A stretch of 33,295 nt of DNA from Bacteroidaceae bacterium (GTDB lineage Bacteria > Bacteroidota > Bacteroidia > Bacteroidales > Bacteroidaceae), in contig JAGCFP010000059.1 in assembly GCA_017650045.1 (NCBI GenBank), positions 1-33,295 of the forward strand, in the 5' to 3' direction. Shown piece after piece: positions 1 to 26,596 of this stretch. A model generated the notes under the pieces. It searched no databases. It was not told the origin of the DNA and saw nothing but the letters and a program-made list of their open reading frames with translations. How positions within the stretch are numbered: position 1 is the stretch's first letter; the number at the start of each line of letters is the position of its first letter. The translations under genes and the position numbers were made by a program.

Positions 1-218
1 AGAAGTACTGCAAAGAGTGCGATGACAACCAACATAAGAATCATCTTGATCCTTATCCTACCAATAGAGGCATCTGGCATCAGGAAATCCATCAATTCCT
101 CATCACCAAAATCTTTAATGGCCTTTTTTCGCTTGTAATCTGAATAGAAATAGAAAGCCAATCCCAAAGGTATCAGCAACAATAAATATAAATATGTAGG
201 CTCTTCAAATCTAAACAT
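1..218 (-). CDS. batB: BatB-like VWA protein, N-terminal part only
   Basis: The reading frame starts with ATG at 218 and runs off the left edge of the window, so only the first 72 residues are seen. They begin MFRFEEPTYLYLLLLIPLGL, a membrane segment close to the N terminus, and a second hydrophobic stretch (MILMLVVIALFAVLL) starts at about residue 59. This is the usual two-helix opening of Bat von Willebrand factor A proteins. It lies 15 bases downstream of batA in the same direction, the normal batA-batB order of the Bacteroidales aerotolerance operon. The VWA domain itself is outside the window, so the identification rests on the N terminus and the context. Confidence 0.75.
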   Translation of the reverse strand, partial: MFRFEEPTYLYLLLLIPLGLAFYFYSDYKRKKAIKDFGDEELMDFLMPDASIGRIRIKMILMLVVIALFAVL

Positions 219-233
219 TTTCTTTCTTCATTG

Positions 234-1217
234 TTACGGTATTCTTCTAAGAATCGTATGACGCAATAGGACTTCCAGCAAAACACATAGGAAAGCGATG
301 ATTGCAAACAACTCAAATTCCTCATTGCGCTTACTGAATTGTTTCACACTGATCTTAGTCTTTTCCAGTTTGTCAATCTCTTCATACACTTCCTTCAACT
401 TGGAATTGCTGGTAGCTCTATAATAAAGACCATCAGCCACATTAGCTATTTGTGTCAGGGTTCCCTCATCGATTTCTACAGGCACATTGATGTATTGAAT
501 CGTCCCGCCTACAGGATATGGATAAGGCGCTGTTCCATTTGTCCCCACACCGATCGTATAAACCCTGATGCCGAAACTCTTGGCAATCTCTGCAGCAGTT
601 AGTGGCGAAATATCTCCCATATTATTTGTTCCATCTGTCAGAAGGATAATAACCTTAGAGATGGCGTTACTGTCTTTCAACCTTGAGACGGCATTTGCAA
701 TACCCATACCCACAGCAGTGCCATCTTCTATCATGCCACATTCTGCCTGACCAATCAGATTTAGCAGTACGGAATGATCCACAGTCAATGGACACTGAGT
801 AAAACTCTCACCAGCAAAAAGCGTCACACCAATATTATCATACGGCCTTCCGTTAATGAACTGTGTGGCCACTTCTTTTGCTGCTTCCAATCTGTTTGGT
901 TTCAAGTCCTCTGCCAACATACTCGTAGAGATATCCAGTGCCAGCATGATGTCGATACCTTCTGTCTCACTGTTCTGCCAACTATCTGTTGATTGTGGTC
1001 TTGCTAAGACGACAACAATCATTGCCAGTGCCAGGGCTCTTAAGACAAAAGGAGCATGAATTAAATAATTCTTATAGCTTTTCGGAGCAGTATCATAGAC
1101 ATTCGTGTCTGAGACCTGAAGTGATGCTTCAGCGCTCTTACGTTTCCAAACATACCATAGTATATATGGTATCAGAAGTAACAGTAAAAACAGATATTCC
1201 TTGTTAGCAAATATCAT
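234..1217 (-). CDS. batA: BatA, membrane-anchored VWA-domain protein of the aerotolerance operon
   Basis: 327 residues. A membrane segment (about 8-24) and a second (about 58-73) precede a von Willebrand factor A domain with an intact metal-ion-dependent adhesion motif DISTS at 95-99. The later VWA strand containing VIILLTDGTNN is also present, and a C-terminal membrane helix (FELFAIIAFLCVLLEVLL) lies near residue 305. The VWA domain is predicted to face the periplasm. In Bacteroides fragilis Bat proteins have been linked to aerotolerance and envelope stress, with MoxR as the partner AAA+ ATPase. The exact molecular role is not settled. The gene sits 20 bases after the preceding protein and 15 before batB, so it is part of one transcript. 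Confidence 0.9.
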   Translation of the reverse strand: MIFANKEYLFLLLLLIPYILWYVWKRKSAEASLQVSDTNVYDTAPKSYKNYLIHAPFVLRALALAMIVVVLARPQSTDSWQNSETEGIDIMLALDISTSMLAEDLKPNRLEAAKEVATQFINGRPYDNIGVTLFAGESFTQCPLTVDHSVLLNLIGQAECGMIEDGTAVGMGIANAVSRLKDSNAISKVIILLTDGTNNMGDISPLTAAEIAKSFGIRVYTIGVGTNGTAPYPYPVGGTIQYINVPVEIDEGTLTQIANVADGLYYRATSNSKLKEVYEEIDKLEKTKISVKQFSKRNEEFELFAIIAFLCVLLEVLLRHTILRRIP

Positions 1218-1237
1218 TTTCTCAGTTAAAATTTAAT

Positions 1238-2308
1238 TTAAGCATAATAATAATATAGCTCCCGTCCAACATATATAACAGCCAACAAAAGCACTACTAC
1301 TATCAGCACAATAATTCCTCCTAATATCAATTTGGTACGAAGAGGACGTTTTTCTATGATCGTTATTTCTGTAGGTTCAGGCTTCGCATTTGGATCGGGT
1401 ATCTCCTTCGTTTCATTGACAAACTTCAGAGCACTCAACAAATTAGCATCGTTCTCGTTCATCAGTGGAACAAGCTTTGCAAATTTGACCAAATCGGAAG
1501 TCTGGAACAAACCTTTCAATTCTTCTATGGCTTTTTCATCTTTAACTTCCAGGAGTTTGTCGATGATTTCTGTAGAAGTCATCTCCATGGCGTTGAATCC
1601 AAAGCGACGATTGATATAATTACGTATAGCATCCGAAAGCTCAGTGTAATACTCCTTCTGAAGTCCTTTCTGCCAGGCTTTTTCGTTCTTGATTCTTTCC
1701 AATTCTTTCAAAGCCAATTCATGTGCTGGTAATTTAGGCTCAACTTTGACTTTGCGAATAATCGGTTGGTTATCCCTGATACGTTTGATGAAGTAATACA
1801 ACAAAAACGCCAATGGGAAGAACAATACGATACATGCGATGACCAGATACCAATCAGACCATACAAATCGAGGTGTCAACACATCTTTGGGACCAAAGAA
1901 CTGATCTGGATGCAAGGTATCTACAGGAAATGAATATACTTTCAATGCCAATGGATTTGACTGATATACCTCCCCTCCCACTTCTACTTCCATCGGAGGA
2001 AGGTAATAGAGTGCAGAATCGAAGGATGTGATGATGTACTTTTGTTTCAAGACAAGACGTTTTCCGTCATTCAAGTATTCAGAATCCGGTTGCGCAATTT
2101 CAATCAGTTCTACTCCACTTACGAGTGTATCACTATACACCGGCATTTTGATGTGTTTATCCGCATCGGCAGAAACCTCCAATGTGATGCCTGTTTGCTC
2201 TCCAATTAAGATTTGCAAAGAATCTATTTGGGCATTCACAGTGACAGATTGTGCAAATACCTGTGCAAATATAGTTGAGAAAAATATCAGTATAAATATC
2301 CTTTTCAT
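1238..2308 (-). CDS. Bat-operon protein with signal peptide and two membrane segments
   Basis: The frame is open to an ATG at 2332, but that start overlaps the preceding gene. The ATG at 2308 gives a clean signal peptide (MKRIFILIFFSTIFAQVFAQ) and lies just after the upstream stop, so I use it (356 residues). After the signal peptide comes an extracytoplasmic, probably beta-rich domain of about 130 residues. Then comes a membrane helix (WYLVIACIVLFFPLAFLLYY), a charged cytoplasmic region of about 130 residues, and a C-terminal membrane helix (LILGGIIVLIVVVLLLAVIY). A protein of this architecture commonly lies between DUF58 and batA in Bacteroidetes. It probably couples the VWA proteins to the cytoplasmic MoxR/DUF58 pair, but no activity is known to me. 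Confidence 0.8.
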   Translation of the reverse strand: MKRIFILIFFSTIFAQVFAQSVTVNAQIDSLQILIGEQTGITLEVSADADKHIKMPVYSDTLVSGVELIEIAQPDSEYLNDGKRLVLKQKYIITSFDSALYYLPPMEVEVGGEVYQSNPLALKVYSFPVDTLHPDQFFGPKDVLTPRFVWSDWYLVIACIVLFFPLAFLLYYFIKRIRDNQPIIRKVKVEPKLPAHELALKELERIKNEKAWQKGLQKEYYTELSDAIRNYINRRFGFNAMEMTSTEIIDKLLEVKDEKAIEELKGLFQTSDLVKFAKLVPLMNENDANLLSALKFVNETKEIPDPNAKPEPTEITIIEKRPLRTKLILGGIIVLIVVVLLLAVIYVGRELYYYYA

Positions 2309-2315
2309 CCGTATT

Positions 2316-3185
2316 CTAATTTCTTTTGGCAAACAGATTCATCAATGCTTTCACATAATCTTGATCTGTTCTTACCGAAACTACATCCACATTGCTCTTG
2401 GTAAACATTTCACCAAGTTGCAACTGTTTGTTGACCCACCATTCATGATGTGCTTTTCGAACAGCCTTTGACGATGTGTCAATCCATTGTTCCGCTCCTG
2501 TTTCTGCATCCTTAACTCTGATCAATCCAACAGAGGGCAGTTCTGCTAATCGACGATCATAAACTTGAACGGCCACCATATCGTGTTTTCTGTTGGCAAT
2601 GGTCATTGCATTCTGGAAGTCAGCCTTATCCAAGAAGTCGGAAAGAATGAATGCCGTACAACGACGTTTCATTACATTCGTCAGATATTCCAAAGCTGCG
2701 CCGATATTCGTTCTTCTGCTAGTTGGCTGGAAATCAAGTAATTCTCTAATAATATAAAGGATGTGCTTTCTGCCTTTCTTAGGAGGAATGAACTTTTCAA
2801 TCTTGTCAGAGAAGAAGATCACTCCAATCTTATCATTGTTCTGGATAGCAGAAAAAGCTAATGTCGCAGCAATTTCTGCAACCATATCCTTTTTCAGTTG
2901 CTTGACAGTTCCGAACTCCAAACTACCAGAGACATCAATCATCAACATGACGGTCAGCTCTCGCTCTTCTTCATATACTTTGATATAAGGCCTGTGAAAA
3001 CGAGCAGTTACATTCCAATCAATGTCGCGCACATCGTCTCCGTATTGGTATTCTCTTACTTCAGAGAATGCCATACCCCTACCCTTGAAGGCTGAATGAT
3101 ATTCACCTGCAAAGATATTGTTTGACAATCCGCGTGTCTTGATTTCTATGCGACGTACTCTATTTATAAGCTCAGTTGCTTCCAT
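2316..3185 (-). CDS. DUF58 domain protein (VWA-like MoxR partner)
   Basis: 289 residues without a signal peptide or clear membrane helix. The DUF58 hallmark is visible as YGDDVRDIDWNVTAR (residues 48-62). It is followed by a VWA-type motif DVSGS at 84-88, a partial metal-binding site. DUF58 proteins accompany MoxR ATPases almost universally and are thought to act as their adaptors or substrates. The gene lies 18 bases downstream of moxR and 7 bases upstream of the preferred start of the next gene, so the proteins are likely made together in fixed amounts. Family assignment is confident; the client is unknown. Confidence 0.9.
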   Translation of the reverse strand: MEATELINRVRRIEIKTRGLSNNIFAGEYHSAFKGRGMAFSEVREYQYGDDVRDIDWNVTARFHRPYIKVYEEERELTVMLMIDVSGSLEFGTVKQLKKDMVAEIAATLAFSAIQNNDKIGVIFFSDKIEKFIPPKKGRKHILYIIRELLDFQPTSRRTNIGAALEYLTNVMKRRCTAFILSDFLDKADFQNAMTIANRKHDMVAVQVYDRRLAELPSVGLIRVKDAETGAEQWIDTSSKAVRKAHHEWWVNKQLQLGEMFTKSNVDVVSVRTDQDYVKALMNLFAKRN

Positions 3186-24317: not shown

Positions 24318-24485
24318 ATATTTTATCCTTGCACCCAATCCTGAAAATGTGAAAGAATTCGCTATTGTAGTAGCTACGCTCTGTTTTACTCTTTACTCTT
24401 CACAAACAACGTGCAATCATTTATGAATCAAGGACTAACGAGCGTGAAGTGTTGGCGCGCACACTTCACAACACTTCACGCTTCT
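24318..24485 (+). repeat. Composite repeat part R2, copy A (promoter-altered)
   Basis: It matches 32453-32622: TTGTAGTAGCTACG, CTCTGTTTTACTC, GAATCAAGGACTAACGAG and a GTGAAGTGTT inverted-repeat cluster occur in both, in the same order. The palindrome GTAGCTAC is conserved. The -7 box of copy B (TATCTTTG) reads TATCCTTG here (24324-24331), and the -33 TTTG is missing, so this copy looks transcriptionally dead. No vapE gene follows it. Confidence 0.8.
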
Positions 24486-24618
24486 TTTGAAGTGTTGGTT
24501 TTATGTCTGTTTTTTATTGAATCTAGTGTGAAGTGTTGTGAAGAGTCAAGCGCAACACTTCACGCTTGCTATTTGCTGATATACATTTACTTAAGGTCCA
24601 TCTGTGAAGTGTGAGGGG
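24443..24618. repeat. Clustered GTGAAGTGTT direct and inverted units
   Basis: The ten-base word GTGAAGTGTT, or its complement AACACTTCAC, recurs at 24444, 24470, 24487 (one base short), 24528 and 24554. The shorter ACACTTCACA is at 24461 and GTGAAGTGTG at 24604. Several units are arranged head to head and can form hairpins of 9-11 bp. The spacing is irregular and there is no cas gene, so this is not a CRISPR array. It lies directly beyond the 3' end of the RT gene and could be a protein-binding cluster or fold in RNA. Confidence 0.75.
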
Positions 24619-24650: not shown

Positions 24651-25865
24651 CTATATAATGATACGCGATTTAACGTAATTATAATACTCATTCACCAGGC
24701 TTTTGTACCCCAATAGTTTAAGTTTTGTATAATCTGTTTTGTAATTAATCTTGCTGTGTTTTCCAGTGCTCAAGAAACGGATGTTCTGCTGAAGGTAATG
24801 ATCAATCTCTTTCAGCCCATCAGTATTATTGATGACAGGGAAAAACCATCTCGACCATGTGAGCGCTTCGGTATCACCATTCTCAAAAAAAACACGGTTA
24901 AAATGATTGATAAGTCCTTTCATTGCTTTTTCAGGTTCCAAATTCTTCTTTATGCTCCAACGCATCAACGACTTGGTTGCCCGCTTAATTTTTCCTTTCA
25001 TCTTCTTTTTGGCGGCTTCAGAGATATCTATATCATGGCCGTTACACTTGAATCCCAAAAATTCAAAGGCTTCATCAGGTGTATAAATTCTTTCCTTGTT
25101 GGGGTTTATTTCGAGTCGGTATTGATTAAGAAATTCCATCATCTTATTTTTATATGCCTCAAGTGTCTTAAAGTCTGGAGCAAACATGATGATATCGTCA
25201 GAATAGCGAGCATAAATGACATGGGCATCATGAAAATACCTATCCACTTCTCTCAGATACACATTGGCCAAAAAAGGTGATGTGGGAGTACCCGCCATCA
25301 CGCCATGATGTTCATAGATGGTTTCACCGTTGTAAACCACTCGGCTATCAGTCAACATGTTCTCAAAGAAACGGAATAAAAGCGTGTCGTCAGCCATCAT
25401 CTCTGACAACATCGGCAACAAAATGTCTATGGAGATGGAATTGAAATAGTCGTGGATATCCAATTTGTATGCCCACATTTTTCGCCCTCCGAGGGCTCGT
25501 TTGATATGAAAGAAGGCATCACTCGCTTTTATGCCACGACGAAAAGCGTAACAATTGGGGGCAAAAAACATATCGTAGTCATATAGCTTGAAGGTAATAA
25601 GTTTGAGAATCATCATCTCGTCAGGGGCAAAACTGTAAACCACTCGTTTCTTGCCCGTACCCATCTTGTTAATAATTCTCTTTTGGGGAATGCTAAGGCC
25701 TTCACCTTGGACGATCTTTTGCGCAAGAGGAAGGTATTCTTCCCGCTCAACATAGCTGTCAGCCTCGTCAAACTCATGCCAAGTGAAACGGCATTTAAGC
25801 AATCGGTAGGCGAGATACGCTTCCCAAGTTTCTTGTTGAGTAAGTTGCGTTAAGATACTTTCCAT
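24651..25865 (-). CDS. Stand-alone reverse transcriptase (class unassigned, DRT/UG-like candidate)
   Basis: 404 residues. All core RT motifs are present: YSFAPDEMMILKLITFKLYD with CYAFRRG (fingers), KLDIHDYFNSIS with the first catalytic Asp at 136, GVMAGTPTSPFLAN (188-201), ARYSDDIIMFA with the catalytic pair at 223-224, and EFLGFKCNG (268-276). The C terminus (about 285-404) is basic and thumb-like, ending in LLGYKSLVNEYYNYVKSRI. There is no maturase/HNH domain, so it is not a complete group II intron protein. No VTG-type retron signature is visible, and the PTSP motif differs from the SQ motif of diversity-generating RTs. It follows a structured 136-base segment and the 169-residue protein gene in the same direction. 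RTs of this kind are often anti-phage; here that is an inference from architecture and the repeat-flanked setting. Confidence 0.9.
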   Translation of the reverse strand: MESILTQLTQQETWEAYLAYRLLKCRFTWHEFDEADSYVEREEYLPLAQKIVQGEGLSIPQKRIINKMGTGKKRVVYSFAPDEMMILKLITFKLYDYDMFFAPNCYAFRRGIKASDAFFHIKRALGGRKMWAYKLDIHDYFNSISIDILLPMLSEMMADDTLLFRFFENMLTDSRVVYNGETIYEHHGVMAGTPTSPFLANVYLREVDRYFHDAHVIYARYSDDIIMFAPDFKTLEAYKNKMMEFLNQYRLEINPNKERIYTPDEAFEFLGFKCNGHDIDISEAAKKKMKGKIKRATKSLMRWSIKKNLEPEKAMKGLINHFNRVFFENGDTEALTWSRWFFPVINNTDGLKEIDHYLQQNIRFLSTGKHSKINYKTDYTKLKLLGYKSLVNEYYNYVKSRIII

Positions 25866-25870
25866 AATTA

Positions 25871-25993
25871 TTAAAAGAAAAAGGGGAATGGTTTTGAATC
25901 CGTAAATTTACGGATCACGTGAGGATACCCTACCTTGTTGCCTGCAAAACATATAAATATGGGTAAGGCTGCCTCCTTTGCAGGCGCAGTCAT
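25871..25993 (-). CDS. Possible 40-residue ORF inside the RT leader
   Basis: An ATG at 25993 opens a frame of 40 codons ending TAA at 25871, eight bases before the RT ATG. It would encode MTAPAKEAALPIFICFAGNK followed by VGYPHVIRKFTDSKPFPFFF. It covers nearly the whole structured segment, and its last codons are the 3' arm of the closing helix. An open frame of this length is not improbable by chance, and the base pairing is a better explanation for conservation. It may be a leader peptide coupled to RT translation, or merely an open frame. I do not recognise the peptide. Confidence 0.25.
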   Translation of the reverse strand: MTAPAKEAALPIFICFAGNKVGYPHVIRKFTDSKPFPFFF

Positions 25994-26011
25994 GCTGCAT
26001 CCCCTTTTTCT
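25876..26011 (-). ncRNA. Candidate structured RNA upstream of the reverse transcriptase
   Basis: Read on the minus strand, AGAAAAAGGGGA (26011-26000) pairs perfectly with TCCCCTTTTTCT (25887-25876), closing a 136-base element. Inside are a hairpin GCAG-CATGA-CTGC (25998-25986) and a 9-bp helix GCCTGCAAA/TTTGCAGGC (25985-25977 with 25948-25940) that encloses a small AT hairpin. An 18-base palindrome ATCCGTAAATTTACGGAT (25915-25898) folds as a 7-bp stem with an AATT loop. TACCC (25965-25961) could also pair with GGGTA (25930-25926) as a pseudoknot. A long end-closing helix and internal stems directly before an RT gene recall retron msr-msd RNAs (a1/a2 arms) and the template RNA of DRT2. The family is not identified. 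Confidence 0.65.
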
Positions 26012-26018
26012 GTATTTC

Positions 26019-26528
26019 TTAGTTCAAGAATTTACGAATACGACCTATCACATAACTCCTTTCGTTCTCCATCTGTGTATAGAAGTTAATATAAGGAAGC
26101 CCCAGTTTCTTGGCATACATCCTTGCGATAAGGTACTTCACATTGCTGTCGTGACTGTGACCATTGCCGAGCATAACTGTTGCGATGGCTCTGCCATCTT
26201 TTTCGAGAACGAACGTGTAGGGCTTACCCCATTCGGCTTTATAGACCTGCGTCGGGCGCGTCTTGTAGAGTTTGAACTCGTCGCTAACGAATCCAGCCAA
26301 ATTGGTTACCGGTACGTCTTCTAATATTGTGTACGATGGAAATTCGTTCAATAGGATTTCCTTGAAATAAGCATTCCATTCAACGTCAGTCCTTTCTCTT
26401 TCTACAATCGGAGAGGCAGGACGCTGAGTTGGTCGAACCTGTTGCGTGGGTGTAGTATCATTCTTAGAATCAATATACTCCTTGGCAACATCCACAATCT
26501 TCTTTAATAACAGTTTCCCTAAATCCAT
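26019..26528 (-). CDS. Protein of unknown function preceding the RNA/RT pair
   Basis: 169 residues, not recognised. An amphipathic N-terminal helix (MDLGKLLLKKIVDVAKEYID) is followed by a Pro/Thr/Gln/Arg-rich linker (about 23-45) and a compact domain (about 48-169). That domain contains YTFVLEKDGRAIATVMLGNG, then a helix rich in Lys/Arg/Tyr, then KLGLPYINFYTQMENERSYV. The strand-helix-strand order ending in a GLPYI-type strand is reminiscent of restriction-endonuclease-like folds, but I cannot place a complete PD-(D/E)xK site. It has its own promoter (26566-26596). The candidate RNA begins 7 bases after its stop, with no clear promoter in between, so all three elements may be one transcript. 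It may be an effector or accessory protein of the RT, or just a neighbour. Confidence 0.75.
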   Translation of the reverse strand: MDLGKLLLKKIVDVAKEYIDSKNDTTPTQQVRPTQRPASPIVERERTDVEWNAYFKEILLNEFPSYTILEDVPVTNLAGFVSDEFKLYKTRPTQVYKAEWGKPYTFVLEKDGRAIATVMLGNGHSHDSNVKYLIARMYAKKLGLPYINFYTQMENERSYVIGRIRKFLN

Positions 26529-26565
26529 GGTTTTAGTTTTTATAATTAGATGAATTATAGTTTTG

Positions 26566-26596
26566 CAAATATATAGAATATCTTTGAATAAAGAAA
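26566..26596 (-). promoter_or_regulatory. Promoter of the 169-residue protein / RNA / RT unit
   Basis: On the minus strand the -7 box TATATTTG (26566-26573) is preceded by TTTC, a near match to the -33 TTTG, at 19 bases. The leader to the ATG at 26528 is about 30 bases. It is the only good promoter I see for this unit. Confidence 0.6.

What the first reader, a model, noticed from the sequence alone, without database searches (positions are those of the whole stretch)
25876..26011. A closed, multi-stem RNA candidate directly upstream of a stand-alone reverse transcriptase
Seen directly: a 12-bp perfect closing helix (26011-26000 with 25887-25876), a 4-bp hairpin, a 9-bp internal helix, an 18-base palindrome and a possible pseudoknot, all in 136 bases ending five bases before the codons that precede the RT start. 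Known: retron RNAs are bounded by complementary a1/a2 arms, and DRT2-type RTs use an upstream template RNA for rolling copies. Inference: this is the cognate RNA of an RT system not obviously of a standard class. The RT lacks the usual retron and diversity-generating signatures.
Basis: partly seen in the sequence, partly recalled or inferred. Interest (0 to 1): 0.87.

Follow-up and report, generated by a model that had tools for sequence, protein, structure and literature searches.

The report
Pseudoknotted partner RNA of UG26 reverse transcriptase
A bacterial genome carries a small, knotted RNA that sits beside one class of reverse transcriptase and a small partner protein, which makes the trio a likely but untested member of the DNA-making antiviral systems of bacteria.

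Summary
The element is real at exactly 25876-26011 (-). It is a member of Rfam RF03026 "RT-5" (80.4 bits, cut-off 45.7), and the RT is PADLOC class UG26 (E 3e-157), so neither part is unclassified. What is added here:
(1) The RNA is longer than Rfam's 104 positions. An outer helix and an H-type pseudoknot are supported by compensatory changes in 83 RNAs (94.0% of cells paired; outer helix 95.7%, pseudoknot 99.8%; slid controls 44-49%).
(2) The RT is not stand-alone. A small protein gene (ACC, 26019-26528) precedes the RNA, giving ACC-RNA-RT in 78 of 80 relatives; the other two contigs begin at or inside the RT.
(3) Three divergent UG26 RTs (30-33% identical) keep the RNA; the two that can be checked lack ACC.
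(4) Genes can lie between RNA and RT (trkA-trkH in one genome), which argues for a trans-acting RNA rather than an RT leader.
(5) One locus fuses ACC domains to apparent membrane segments.
Best reading: the scaffold and probably template RNA of an uncharacterised DRT-like system. Template, product and defence are inferred. Tests of two known modes (endless ORF; A-B-A' repeat) were negative or inconclusive. No experimental study of UG26 turned up in the held papers.

The parts
25876..26011 (-). UG26 cognate ncRNA (full element, 136 nt); Rfam RF03026 RT-5 covers 25885-25989 of it
   Evidence: Rfam; own model R1, 142.8 bits, exactly these ends; the window's RNA was in its training set; covariation
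26000..26011 (-). P1 closing helix, 5' strand (pairs with 25876-25887); not in the Rfam model's paired part
   Evidence: cols 9-19/166-176 paired in 95.7% of cells, 10 of 11 pairs with changes on both sides
25876..25887 (-). P1 closing helix, 3' strand, followed by a U-rich stretch
25986..25998 (-). P2 hairpin (GCAG...CUGC here; a fifth pair forms in 65 of 83)
   Evidence: 93.0% paired, 4 of 5 pairs with changes on both sides
25980..25985 (-). P3 pseudoknot, 5' strand GCCUGC
   Evidence: 99.8% paired, 4 of 6 pairs with changes on both sides; changed on both sides again in clade B
25940..25945 (-). P3 pseudoknot, 3' strand GCAGGC, in the loop of P6
25921..25975 (-). P4 stem (P4a 25975-25972/25924-25921; P4b 25968-25961/25935-25928) capped by P6 (25951-25948/25939-25936)
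   Evidence: P4a 97.3%, P4b 89.5%, P6 95.2% paired
25952..25960 (-). variable bulge between P4b and P6 (6-13 nt in 82 RNAs, 19 in one); no repeat or hairpin excess inside it, though bulge plus P6 5' strand shows a slight hairpin excess
25898..25915 (-). P5 hairpin (the 18-base palindrome)
   Evidence: 89.6% paired, all 6 pairs of its main part with changes on both sides
25887..25897 (-). 3' linker UCAAAnnnnnU between P5 and P1; candidate template by position (inferred)
   Evidence: UCAAA in 82 of 83 tails (UUAAA in L114); 10-12 nt in 79 of 80 rows that end in a C-run, the 80th (L107) mis-cut, 3 rows without a C-run (L003, L031, L035) left out
24651..25865 (-). UG26 reverse transcriptase, 404 aa, YSDD at residues 221-224 (25205-25194)
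   Evidence: RT_UG26 3.1e-157; PF00078
24681..24686 (-). RT Tyr394-Tyr395 near the C-terminus (SLVNEYY); candidate priming tyrosines (inferred)
   Evidence: at least one Tyr at the two positions in 70 of 72 RTs of A4
26019..26528 (-). ACC, accessory protein gene, 169 aa; amphipathic N-terminus, P/Q-rich linker, C-terminal domain related to PADLOC RTasCOG2852
26565..26573 (-). TATATTTGC, a Bacteroidetes-type -7 box upstream of ACC; no other match on this strand between it and the RT end, so one transcript is likely (weak)
   Evidence: 19 matches in the window, 12.7 expected; the consensus is recalled

Best explanation
The 136 nt are the dedicated, trans-acting RNA of a three-part cassette ACC-RNA-RT of the UG26 class. 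The RNA folds into a closed, pseudoknotted scaffold that binds the RT. The RT then copies a short stretch of this RNA into DNA, most likely the 3' linker UCAAAnnnnnU between the last hairpin and the closing helix, as class 2 defence RTs (DRT2, DRT3a, DRT9, DRT10) copy parts of theirs. ACC is the effector or regulator, plausibly at the membrane. Supported here by sequence: the RNA, its fold, its association with UG26 RTs, the three-part order, and that it need not adjoin the RT. Inferred: binding, templating, priming by a C-terminal tyrosine, the role of ACC, antiphage function.
For: Association: model R1 hits 79 of 80 UG26 loci of the main scan (77 were in its training set, L116 copies one of them, L053 is cut by the contig end; the one miss, L111, begins inside the RT). 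Independently, Rfam's RF03026 found 7 genomes of 393 (6 over its cut-off), all with a UG26 RT on the same contig. R1 in the family: 10 RNAs in 9 of 301 genomes (the window's own and G170 among them), all with a UG26 RT on the contig. No hit in 46 other sources with other RTs. Three clade B UG26 loci, RT 30-33% identical and not in the training set, carry the RNA (62.5, 53.8, 47.7 bits). Fold: 94.0% of cells paired, 39 of 45 pairs with changes on both sides, 0 of 500 shuffles as high on any of five measures. Trans action: trkA-trkH lie between RNA and RT in L092, a small gene in L031. Three parts: ACC upstream in 78 of 80; besides RT, ACC and out-of-frame ORFs over ACC, no neighbour family recurs in more than 8 of 80 loci. 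Analogy: in five UG17/DRT10 loci read here I place the A-B-A' stretch, by eye, between the last hairpin and the closing helix, the same place as UCAAA; the DRT10 ncRNA is 137 nt with a template just 3' of SL5 (PMC12632851, passages and sections 7-9).
Against: No transcript, RNP, cDNA or phage data exist here. The A-B-A' signature is not significant in the UG26 linker (p 0.09-0.60) nor in the bulge. A post hoc U excess at one linker position (p 0.0007) is weak, and A' would have to open the innermost P1 pairs. The same kind of test gave p 0.26 on the five DRT10 loci, so it has little power and my reading of them by eye is not backed by it. UG26 groups with UG27, not with UG17, in the tree, and DRT2, DRT3a and DRT9 are not in it, so class 2 membership is unproved. 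The two C-terminal positions lack Tyr in 2 of 72 RTs. PADLOC lists UG26 as DRT, but no neighbour recurs, and I did not scan the neighbours for defence genes.
Confidence: 0.7

Rival explanations
1. The RNA is a cis-acting 5' leader (riboswitch or attenuator) that controls RT expression: its closing helix ends in a U-rich tract, like a terminator.
For: It lies a median 10 nt upstream of the RT start in the 83 loci examined, and P1 plus the U-tract resembles an intrinsic terminator (sequence; the scan cannot judge this because it allows loops of 3-8 only).
Against: Distance to the RT varies from 7 to 3054 nt and exceeds 60 nt in 10 of 83; in L092 trkA-trkH and in L031 a small gene separate them with the RNA intact. 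In G966 one copy precedes an ACC gene and the other the RT.
Confidence: 0.12
2. The RNA binds the RT only as scaffold or regulator of oligomerisation, and DNA synthesis is untemplated (class 1-like) or templated by another RNA.
For: Much of the RNA is helix, and the A-B-A' tests are not significant. The most conserved unpaired bases (UCAAA) could be a protein-binding site.
Against: Pfam sees only RVT_1 in the 404 aa, unlike the class 1 fusion to a HEAT-like repeat domain described in PMC13174585 (passages). The class 2 systems described there use a cis-encoded ncRNA as template.
Confidence: 0.15
3. DRT9-like homopolymer synthesis: the conserved AAA of UCAAA templates poly(dT).
For: AAA is present in all 83 tails (run of 3 in 22, 4 in 17, 5 in 2, 7 in 1 of 42 distinct linkers). 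In DRT9 four uracils, U124-U127, lie next to the C-terminal loop and the product (PMC12489045, passages), and a U-rich stretch templates poly-dA (PMC12483538, passages).
Against: The run is only three long in 22 of 42 distinct linkers, and the conserved UC before it would be unexplained.
Confidence: 0.15
4. A retron-type msr-msd bounded by a1/a2 arms.
For: A closing helix bounds the RNA; retron RTs are remote relatives (best retron profile 2.5e-16).
Against: The RT is UG26 at 3e-157; NAxxH occurs in 2 and VTG in 1 of 77 UG26 RTs by pattern (that these mark retrons is recalled). RT-5 is the only Rfam match in the window.
Confidence: 0.02

Closest known systems
Rfam RF03026, RT-5 RNA
   Same: Same family: 80.4 bits, full model 1-104
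   Different: Rfam's consensus structure has no outer helix and does not mark the pseudoknot; the table names no function
PADLOC RT_UG26 (DRT group)
   Same: The RT, E 3.1e-157 over residues 3-399
   Different: The model line gives no function, RNA or partner; I found no study of it
DRT10 / UG17 (PMC12632851)
   Same: Cis-encoded ncRNA of 137 nt with closing stem and a short stretch 3' of the last hairpin; second protein in the operon; UG17 is among the best other profiles of UG26 RTs (3.9e-40 for L004)
   Different: Partner is SLATT, not ACC; no match of model R1 in L182 nor of Rfam in L182, L193-L195, L197; linker 10-12 nt against 20-39 nt as I cut it; different clade
DRT9 / UG28 (PMC12483538, PMC12489045)
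   Same: ncRNA-dependent; two C-terminal tyrosines prime DNA synthesis there, and UG26 ends in SLVNEYY
   Different: DRT9 ncRNA is 188 nt with a U-rich template; UG26 has UCAAA instead
UG27 RTs
   Same: Nearest clade in the tree made here (branch 100/98)
   Different: No ACC homologue in the seven UG27 or UG27-like loci checked and no R1 hit in them; a different structured RNA may lie downstream of the RT

Membership tests
Rfam RT-5 (RF03026) | covariance score above the gathering cut-off | tested here: met
   80.4 against 45.7 bits
UG26 reverse transcriptase | best match to the UG26 profile over full length | tested here: met
   E 3.1e-157 over 2-397 of 398; best other DRT class UG27 3.3e-34; own clade 100/98
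Defence-associated RT (DRT) | RT-dependent antiphage activity | not testable with these tools
   no experiment; PADLOC label only
Class 2 UG/DRT | cis-encoded conserved ncRNA | tested here: met
Class 2 UG/DRT | ncRNA templates the product | tested here: inconclusive
   (sequence signatures only)
Class 2 UG/DRT | phylogenetic place among class 2 RTs | tested here: inconclusive
   small tree groups UG26 with UG27; DRT2, DRT3a and DRT9 not included
DRT10 | UG17 RT with SLATT partner | tested here: not met
   UG17 profile 4.3e-30 only; partner is ACC
DRT10 | A-B-A' template next to a stem-loop | tested here: inconclusive
DRT2 | concatemer of the copied RNA is an endless ORF | tested here: not met
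   sense 14 of 83 open (shuffled mean 15.6), antisense 17 (mean 13.9, equal to the highest of 60 shuffles); 0 open among the 60 whose length is not a multiple of 3
DRT9 | conserved U-rich template | tested here: not met
   the conserved unpaired stretch is UCAAA
DRT9 | conserved C-terminal tyrosines | tested here: inconclusive
   at least one Tyr in 70 of 72
Retron | retron-class RT with NAxxH and VTG (motifs recalled) | tested here: not met
Group II intron | intron RNA domains around the RT | tested here: not met
   only RT-5 found in the whole window at gathering scores

The most novel reading that the evidence does not exclude
UG26 is a new type of antiphage system, found mostly in ruminant Bacteroidales and in some Clostridia. 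The RT, primed by its own C-terminal tyrosine, copies the 10-nt linker over and over, telomerase-like, into a tandem repeat of the form (nnnnnTTTGA)n. A pseudoknot holds the template in place, and a membrane-linked ACC protein turns the repetitive DNA, or its loss, into growth arrest. The short A' would be the edge of the closing helix, which would open at each cycle.
Probability: 0.2. Interest if true: 0.85.

Novelty: new variant of a known kind. Interest (0 to 1): 0.6.

Why it matters
An RNA family and an RT class for which I found no described function turn out to be two parts of one three-part cassette. That gives a concrete, testable hypothesis for both: exact RNA ends, a pseudoknot to break and restore, a candidate template, candidate priming residues and a new partner protein. 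If the RNA is copied repetitively, it would add a further RT-ncRNA machine to the DRT2/DRT3/DRT9/DRT10 series, and one with a pseudoknot, an element that telomerase RNA also uses (the last point from general knowledge).

Tried and rejected
A hairpin in the variable bulge (52-54/59-61): only 44.3% of cells paired, rejected. In one search the bulge alone showed no repeat or hairpin excess, but bulge plus the 5' strand of P6 had slightly more hairpin potential than shuffles (mean 2.67 against 2.50; reached in 3 and 1 of 300 shuffles); I do not explain this. A-B-A' repeats in the bulge: equal to shuffles. A-B-A' in the 3' linker: p 0.09 (UC recurs), 0.60 (CA), 0.13 (either), 38 distinct linkers; a later look at single positions gave U excess at 124 (23 of 42, p 0.0007) and A at 123 (17 of 42, p 0.046), chosen after seeing the data and without correction for relatedness. 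Control on five DRT10 linkers: summed p 0.26. My first linker cut let G-U pairs end the linker too early and was discarded. DRT2-like endless ORF: not supported, although the antisense count equals the highest of 60 shuffles.

ACC as a nuclease: PADLOC RTasCOG2852 matches 66 of 72 ACC members at E 0.01 (best 3.1e-8), but an alignment with DUF559 proteins gave probability 0.3% (of its 18 rows L205 was picked wrongly), Pfam gave one weak family in 1 of 72, and only one acidic column (E99) is near-invariant. I do not claim a nuclease. The two ACC-like proteins of G966 have no PADLOC match at 0.001. RTasCOG2852 in 61 related genomes: none, the window's own included, so that search lacks sensitivity.

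UG26 on mobile elements: in viral contigs the best relatives are 29-30% identical, and the four I scanned are UG27 or UG27-like; no relative above 60% in 31 phage records or in the 5000 best plasmid records (limit reached); ACC none in viral contigs. DRT9 was not found in 100 relatives. Rare overall: at E 1e-60 only the window's own genome of 385 across the phylum; 5 of 297 relatives, the window's own included, have UG26 at E below 1e-100.

Neighbour clustering: besides RT (74 loci) and ACC (52 loci as clustered), one cluster of 22 loci and one of 4 are ORFs in other frames over ACC, artefacts of the ORF picking; the next is a RadC-like gene (named by eye) in 8 loci, on both sides and strands.

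Full report
Identity. The RT (24651-25865, minus strand, 404 aa) matches PADLOC RT_UG26 at 3.1e-157; the next DRT profiles are UG27 3.3e-34, UG4 1.9e-31, UG17/DRT10 4.3e-30, DRT9 2.7e-28, DRT3a 7.1e-27. Pfam sees only RVT_1. The upstream element is Rfam RF03026, RT-5, 80.4 bits against a cut-off of 45.7, and is the only Rfam match in the window. Of three papers holding 'UG26' with 'reverse transcriptase' one is relevant, a survey of cold-seep viruses that lists it (PMC10504277, passages). The DRT10 preprint, the DRT3 preprint and the myRT paper do not contain the word. Searches for RT-5, for COG2852 with RT, and for DRT11-DRT14 gave nothing relevant. The paper that I recall as the source of RT-5, and the UG/Abi survey that I recall, are not held, so a statement there cannot be excluded.

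The RNA is longer than its Rfam model. I aligned 83 distinct RNAs taken between ACC and RT of UG26 loci, the window's included (the row L116, identical to L032, was dropped). Counting named pairs on this MAFFT alignment, which was not fitted to structure, gave 94.0% of 3724 cells paired, 39 of 45 pairs with changes on both sides, and covariation score 0.393 against 0.162 in shuffles (0 of 500) and 0.07-0.11 when partners are slid. By helix: closing helix P1 95.7% (10 of 11 pairs with two-sided change), P2 93.0%, pseudoknot P3 99.8% (4 of 6), P4a 97.3%, P4b 89.5%, P6 95.2% (4 of 4), P5 89.6%. The shuffles do not keep relatedness, and many rows are near relatives; the slid control does keep it. 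P6 was found by RNAalifold, not by me. The pseudoknot pairs GCCUGC upstream of P4 with GCAGGC in the loop of P6. Some rows are off by one at the P1 3' strand (seen), so P1 is if anything undercounted. In the clostridial loci L115 and L117 P1 has a largely different sequence and still pairs.

Association. A covariance model (R1) hit the window at exactly 25876-26011 and, outside its training set, the divergent clade B loci L005, L037 and L004 (62.5, 53.8, 47.7 bits) directly upstream of RTs that are 33, 30 and 33% identical. It hit none of 46 other sources with other RTs. In those clade B RNAs the pseudoknot changes on both sides (GCCUUC/GAAGGC; GCUUUC/GAAAGC). In the 80 loci of the genome scan it hit 79, one each; 77 of them were in the training set, L116 copies one, L053 is cut by the contig end, and the miss, L111, begins inside the RT. 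R1 gave 10 RNAs in 9 of 301 family genomes, two of the nine (the window's own, G170) known beforehand, all with a UG26 RT on the contig. In these calls I saw no RNA without a UG26 RT and no UG26 RT with upstream sequence lacking the RNA.

A third part. A gene for a 156-208 aa protein, ACC (one copy cut by a contig end left aside), lies directly upstream of the RNA in 78 of 80 loci; the two exceptions are contigs that start at or inside the RT. ACC stop to RNA start: median 7 nt (2-49); RNA end to RT start: median 10 nt (7-3054), n = 83, RT starts estimated from the profile. Besides RT, ACC and ORFs in other frames over ACC (22 and 4 loci), no neighbour family recurs in more than 8 of 80 loci, within flanks of at most 4 kb that are often cut by contig ends, so the cassette looks self-contained and sits at many sites. 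Two clade B loci with enough upstream sequence (L005, L037) have no ACC; L004 has too little to tell. ACC has an amphipathic N-terminus (moment 0.44 against 0.22 shuffled, higher than its own shuffles in 70 of 76; L075 and L103 left out), a P/Q-rich linker and a C-terminal domain that matches RTasCOG2852 (66 of 72). G966 has ACC1-RNA-ACC2-RNA-RT; ACC2 carries about four hydrophobic segments, a zinc-ribbon-like CxxC pair and two ACC domains (profile E 4.5e-17; topology read by eye). This points to the membrane, as SLATT may in DRT10, but is inference.

Trans action. In L092 trkA and trkH (named by eye) lie between an intact RNA (125.3 bits) and an intact RT; in L031 a small gene does. A leader of the RT would hardly keep its form there. 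The only Bacteroidetes-type -7 box near the cassette on this strand is upstream of ACC, which fits one transcript from which the RNA is cut or ends at its U-tract.

How it may work. Class 2 DRTs studied so far copy a piece of a cis-encoded RNA (PMC13174585 and PMC12483538, passages; PMC12632851, sections 7-9). In DRT10 the template lies just 3' of the last stem-loop and needs an A-B-A' repeat. I read five loci (UG17 by profile in L182, L193 and L195; by similarity and an annotated SLATT neighbour in L194 and L197) and by eye place an A-B-A' between the last hairpin and the closing helix in each (UCAA-CGGUAC-UCAA in L195, for example), but the repeat content of these five is not above shuffles (p 0.26). 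The matching place in UG26 is the linker UCAAAnnnnnU, 10-12 nt in 79 of 80 rows, with UCAAA in 82 of 83. Its repeat signal is not significant. So position favours this linker as template, while mode (tandem repeat, oligo-dT, single pass) stays open. A DRT2-like endless ORF is not supported. The C-terminus SLVNEYY resembles the priming end of DRT9 (two C-terminal tyrosines; PMC12483538, PMC12489045, passages), with Tyr at one of two places in 70 of 72 RTs.

Placement. In a tree of 33 RTs UG26 (14 rows), UG26 clade B (3), UG27 (5) and UG17 (6) are each on one side of a branch with full support, and UG26 plus clade B lies next to UG27 plus two phage RTs (branch 100/98, midpoint root). DRT2, DRT3a and DRT9 were not in the tree, so the class is not settled. 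Among solved chains the best that I take for a DRT is 9ioa (3.6e-21; that it is DRT9 is recalled), after group II-like and CRISPR RTs.

Verdict. A real, well-supported ncRNA that belongs to a described family, now with full ends, a pseudoknot, a protein partner and an argument for trans action. Function, template and defence remain to be shown.

Noticed in passing
L007, L012, L017, L128 and L118, within 260 nt downstream of UG27 or UG27-like RTs: A strongly folded stretch (best of several 140-nt windows, z -5.3 to -6.3 against mononucleotide shuffles; not in L125 or L121) lies just after the RT gene; in L007, L012 and L017 similar nested stems recur. No Rfam match: a candidate UG27 ncRNA.
   Followed up: partly
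L191, L192 (G966): UG26 locus with two RNAs and two unusual ACC proteins, one with apparent membrane segments, zinc ribbon and two ACC domains.
   Followed up: partly
L103:2752-3854: Two ACC genes in tandem before the RNA.
   Followed up: no
L092:1061-3888: A trkA-trkH-like pair sits between the RNA and the RT of a UG26 cassette.
   Followed up: partly
L049:3953-5200: The UG26 RT is split into two open frames by a stop; RNA and ACC are present.
   Followed up: no
window 24427-24580: Downstream of the RT: two copies of a 14-bp inverted repeat (AGCGTGAAGTGTTG/CAACACTTCACGCT, one arm with a mismatch) 84 nt apart, inside larger 56-nt arms.
   Followed up: no
L118, L121 (viral contigs): RTs between UG27 and UG26 (UG27 3e-94, UG26 6e-60 for L118) on contigs classed as viral; neither ACC nor the RT-5 RNA beside them.
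   Followed up: partly
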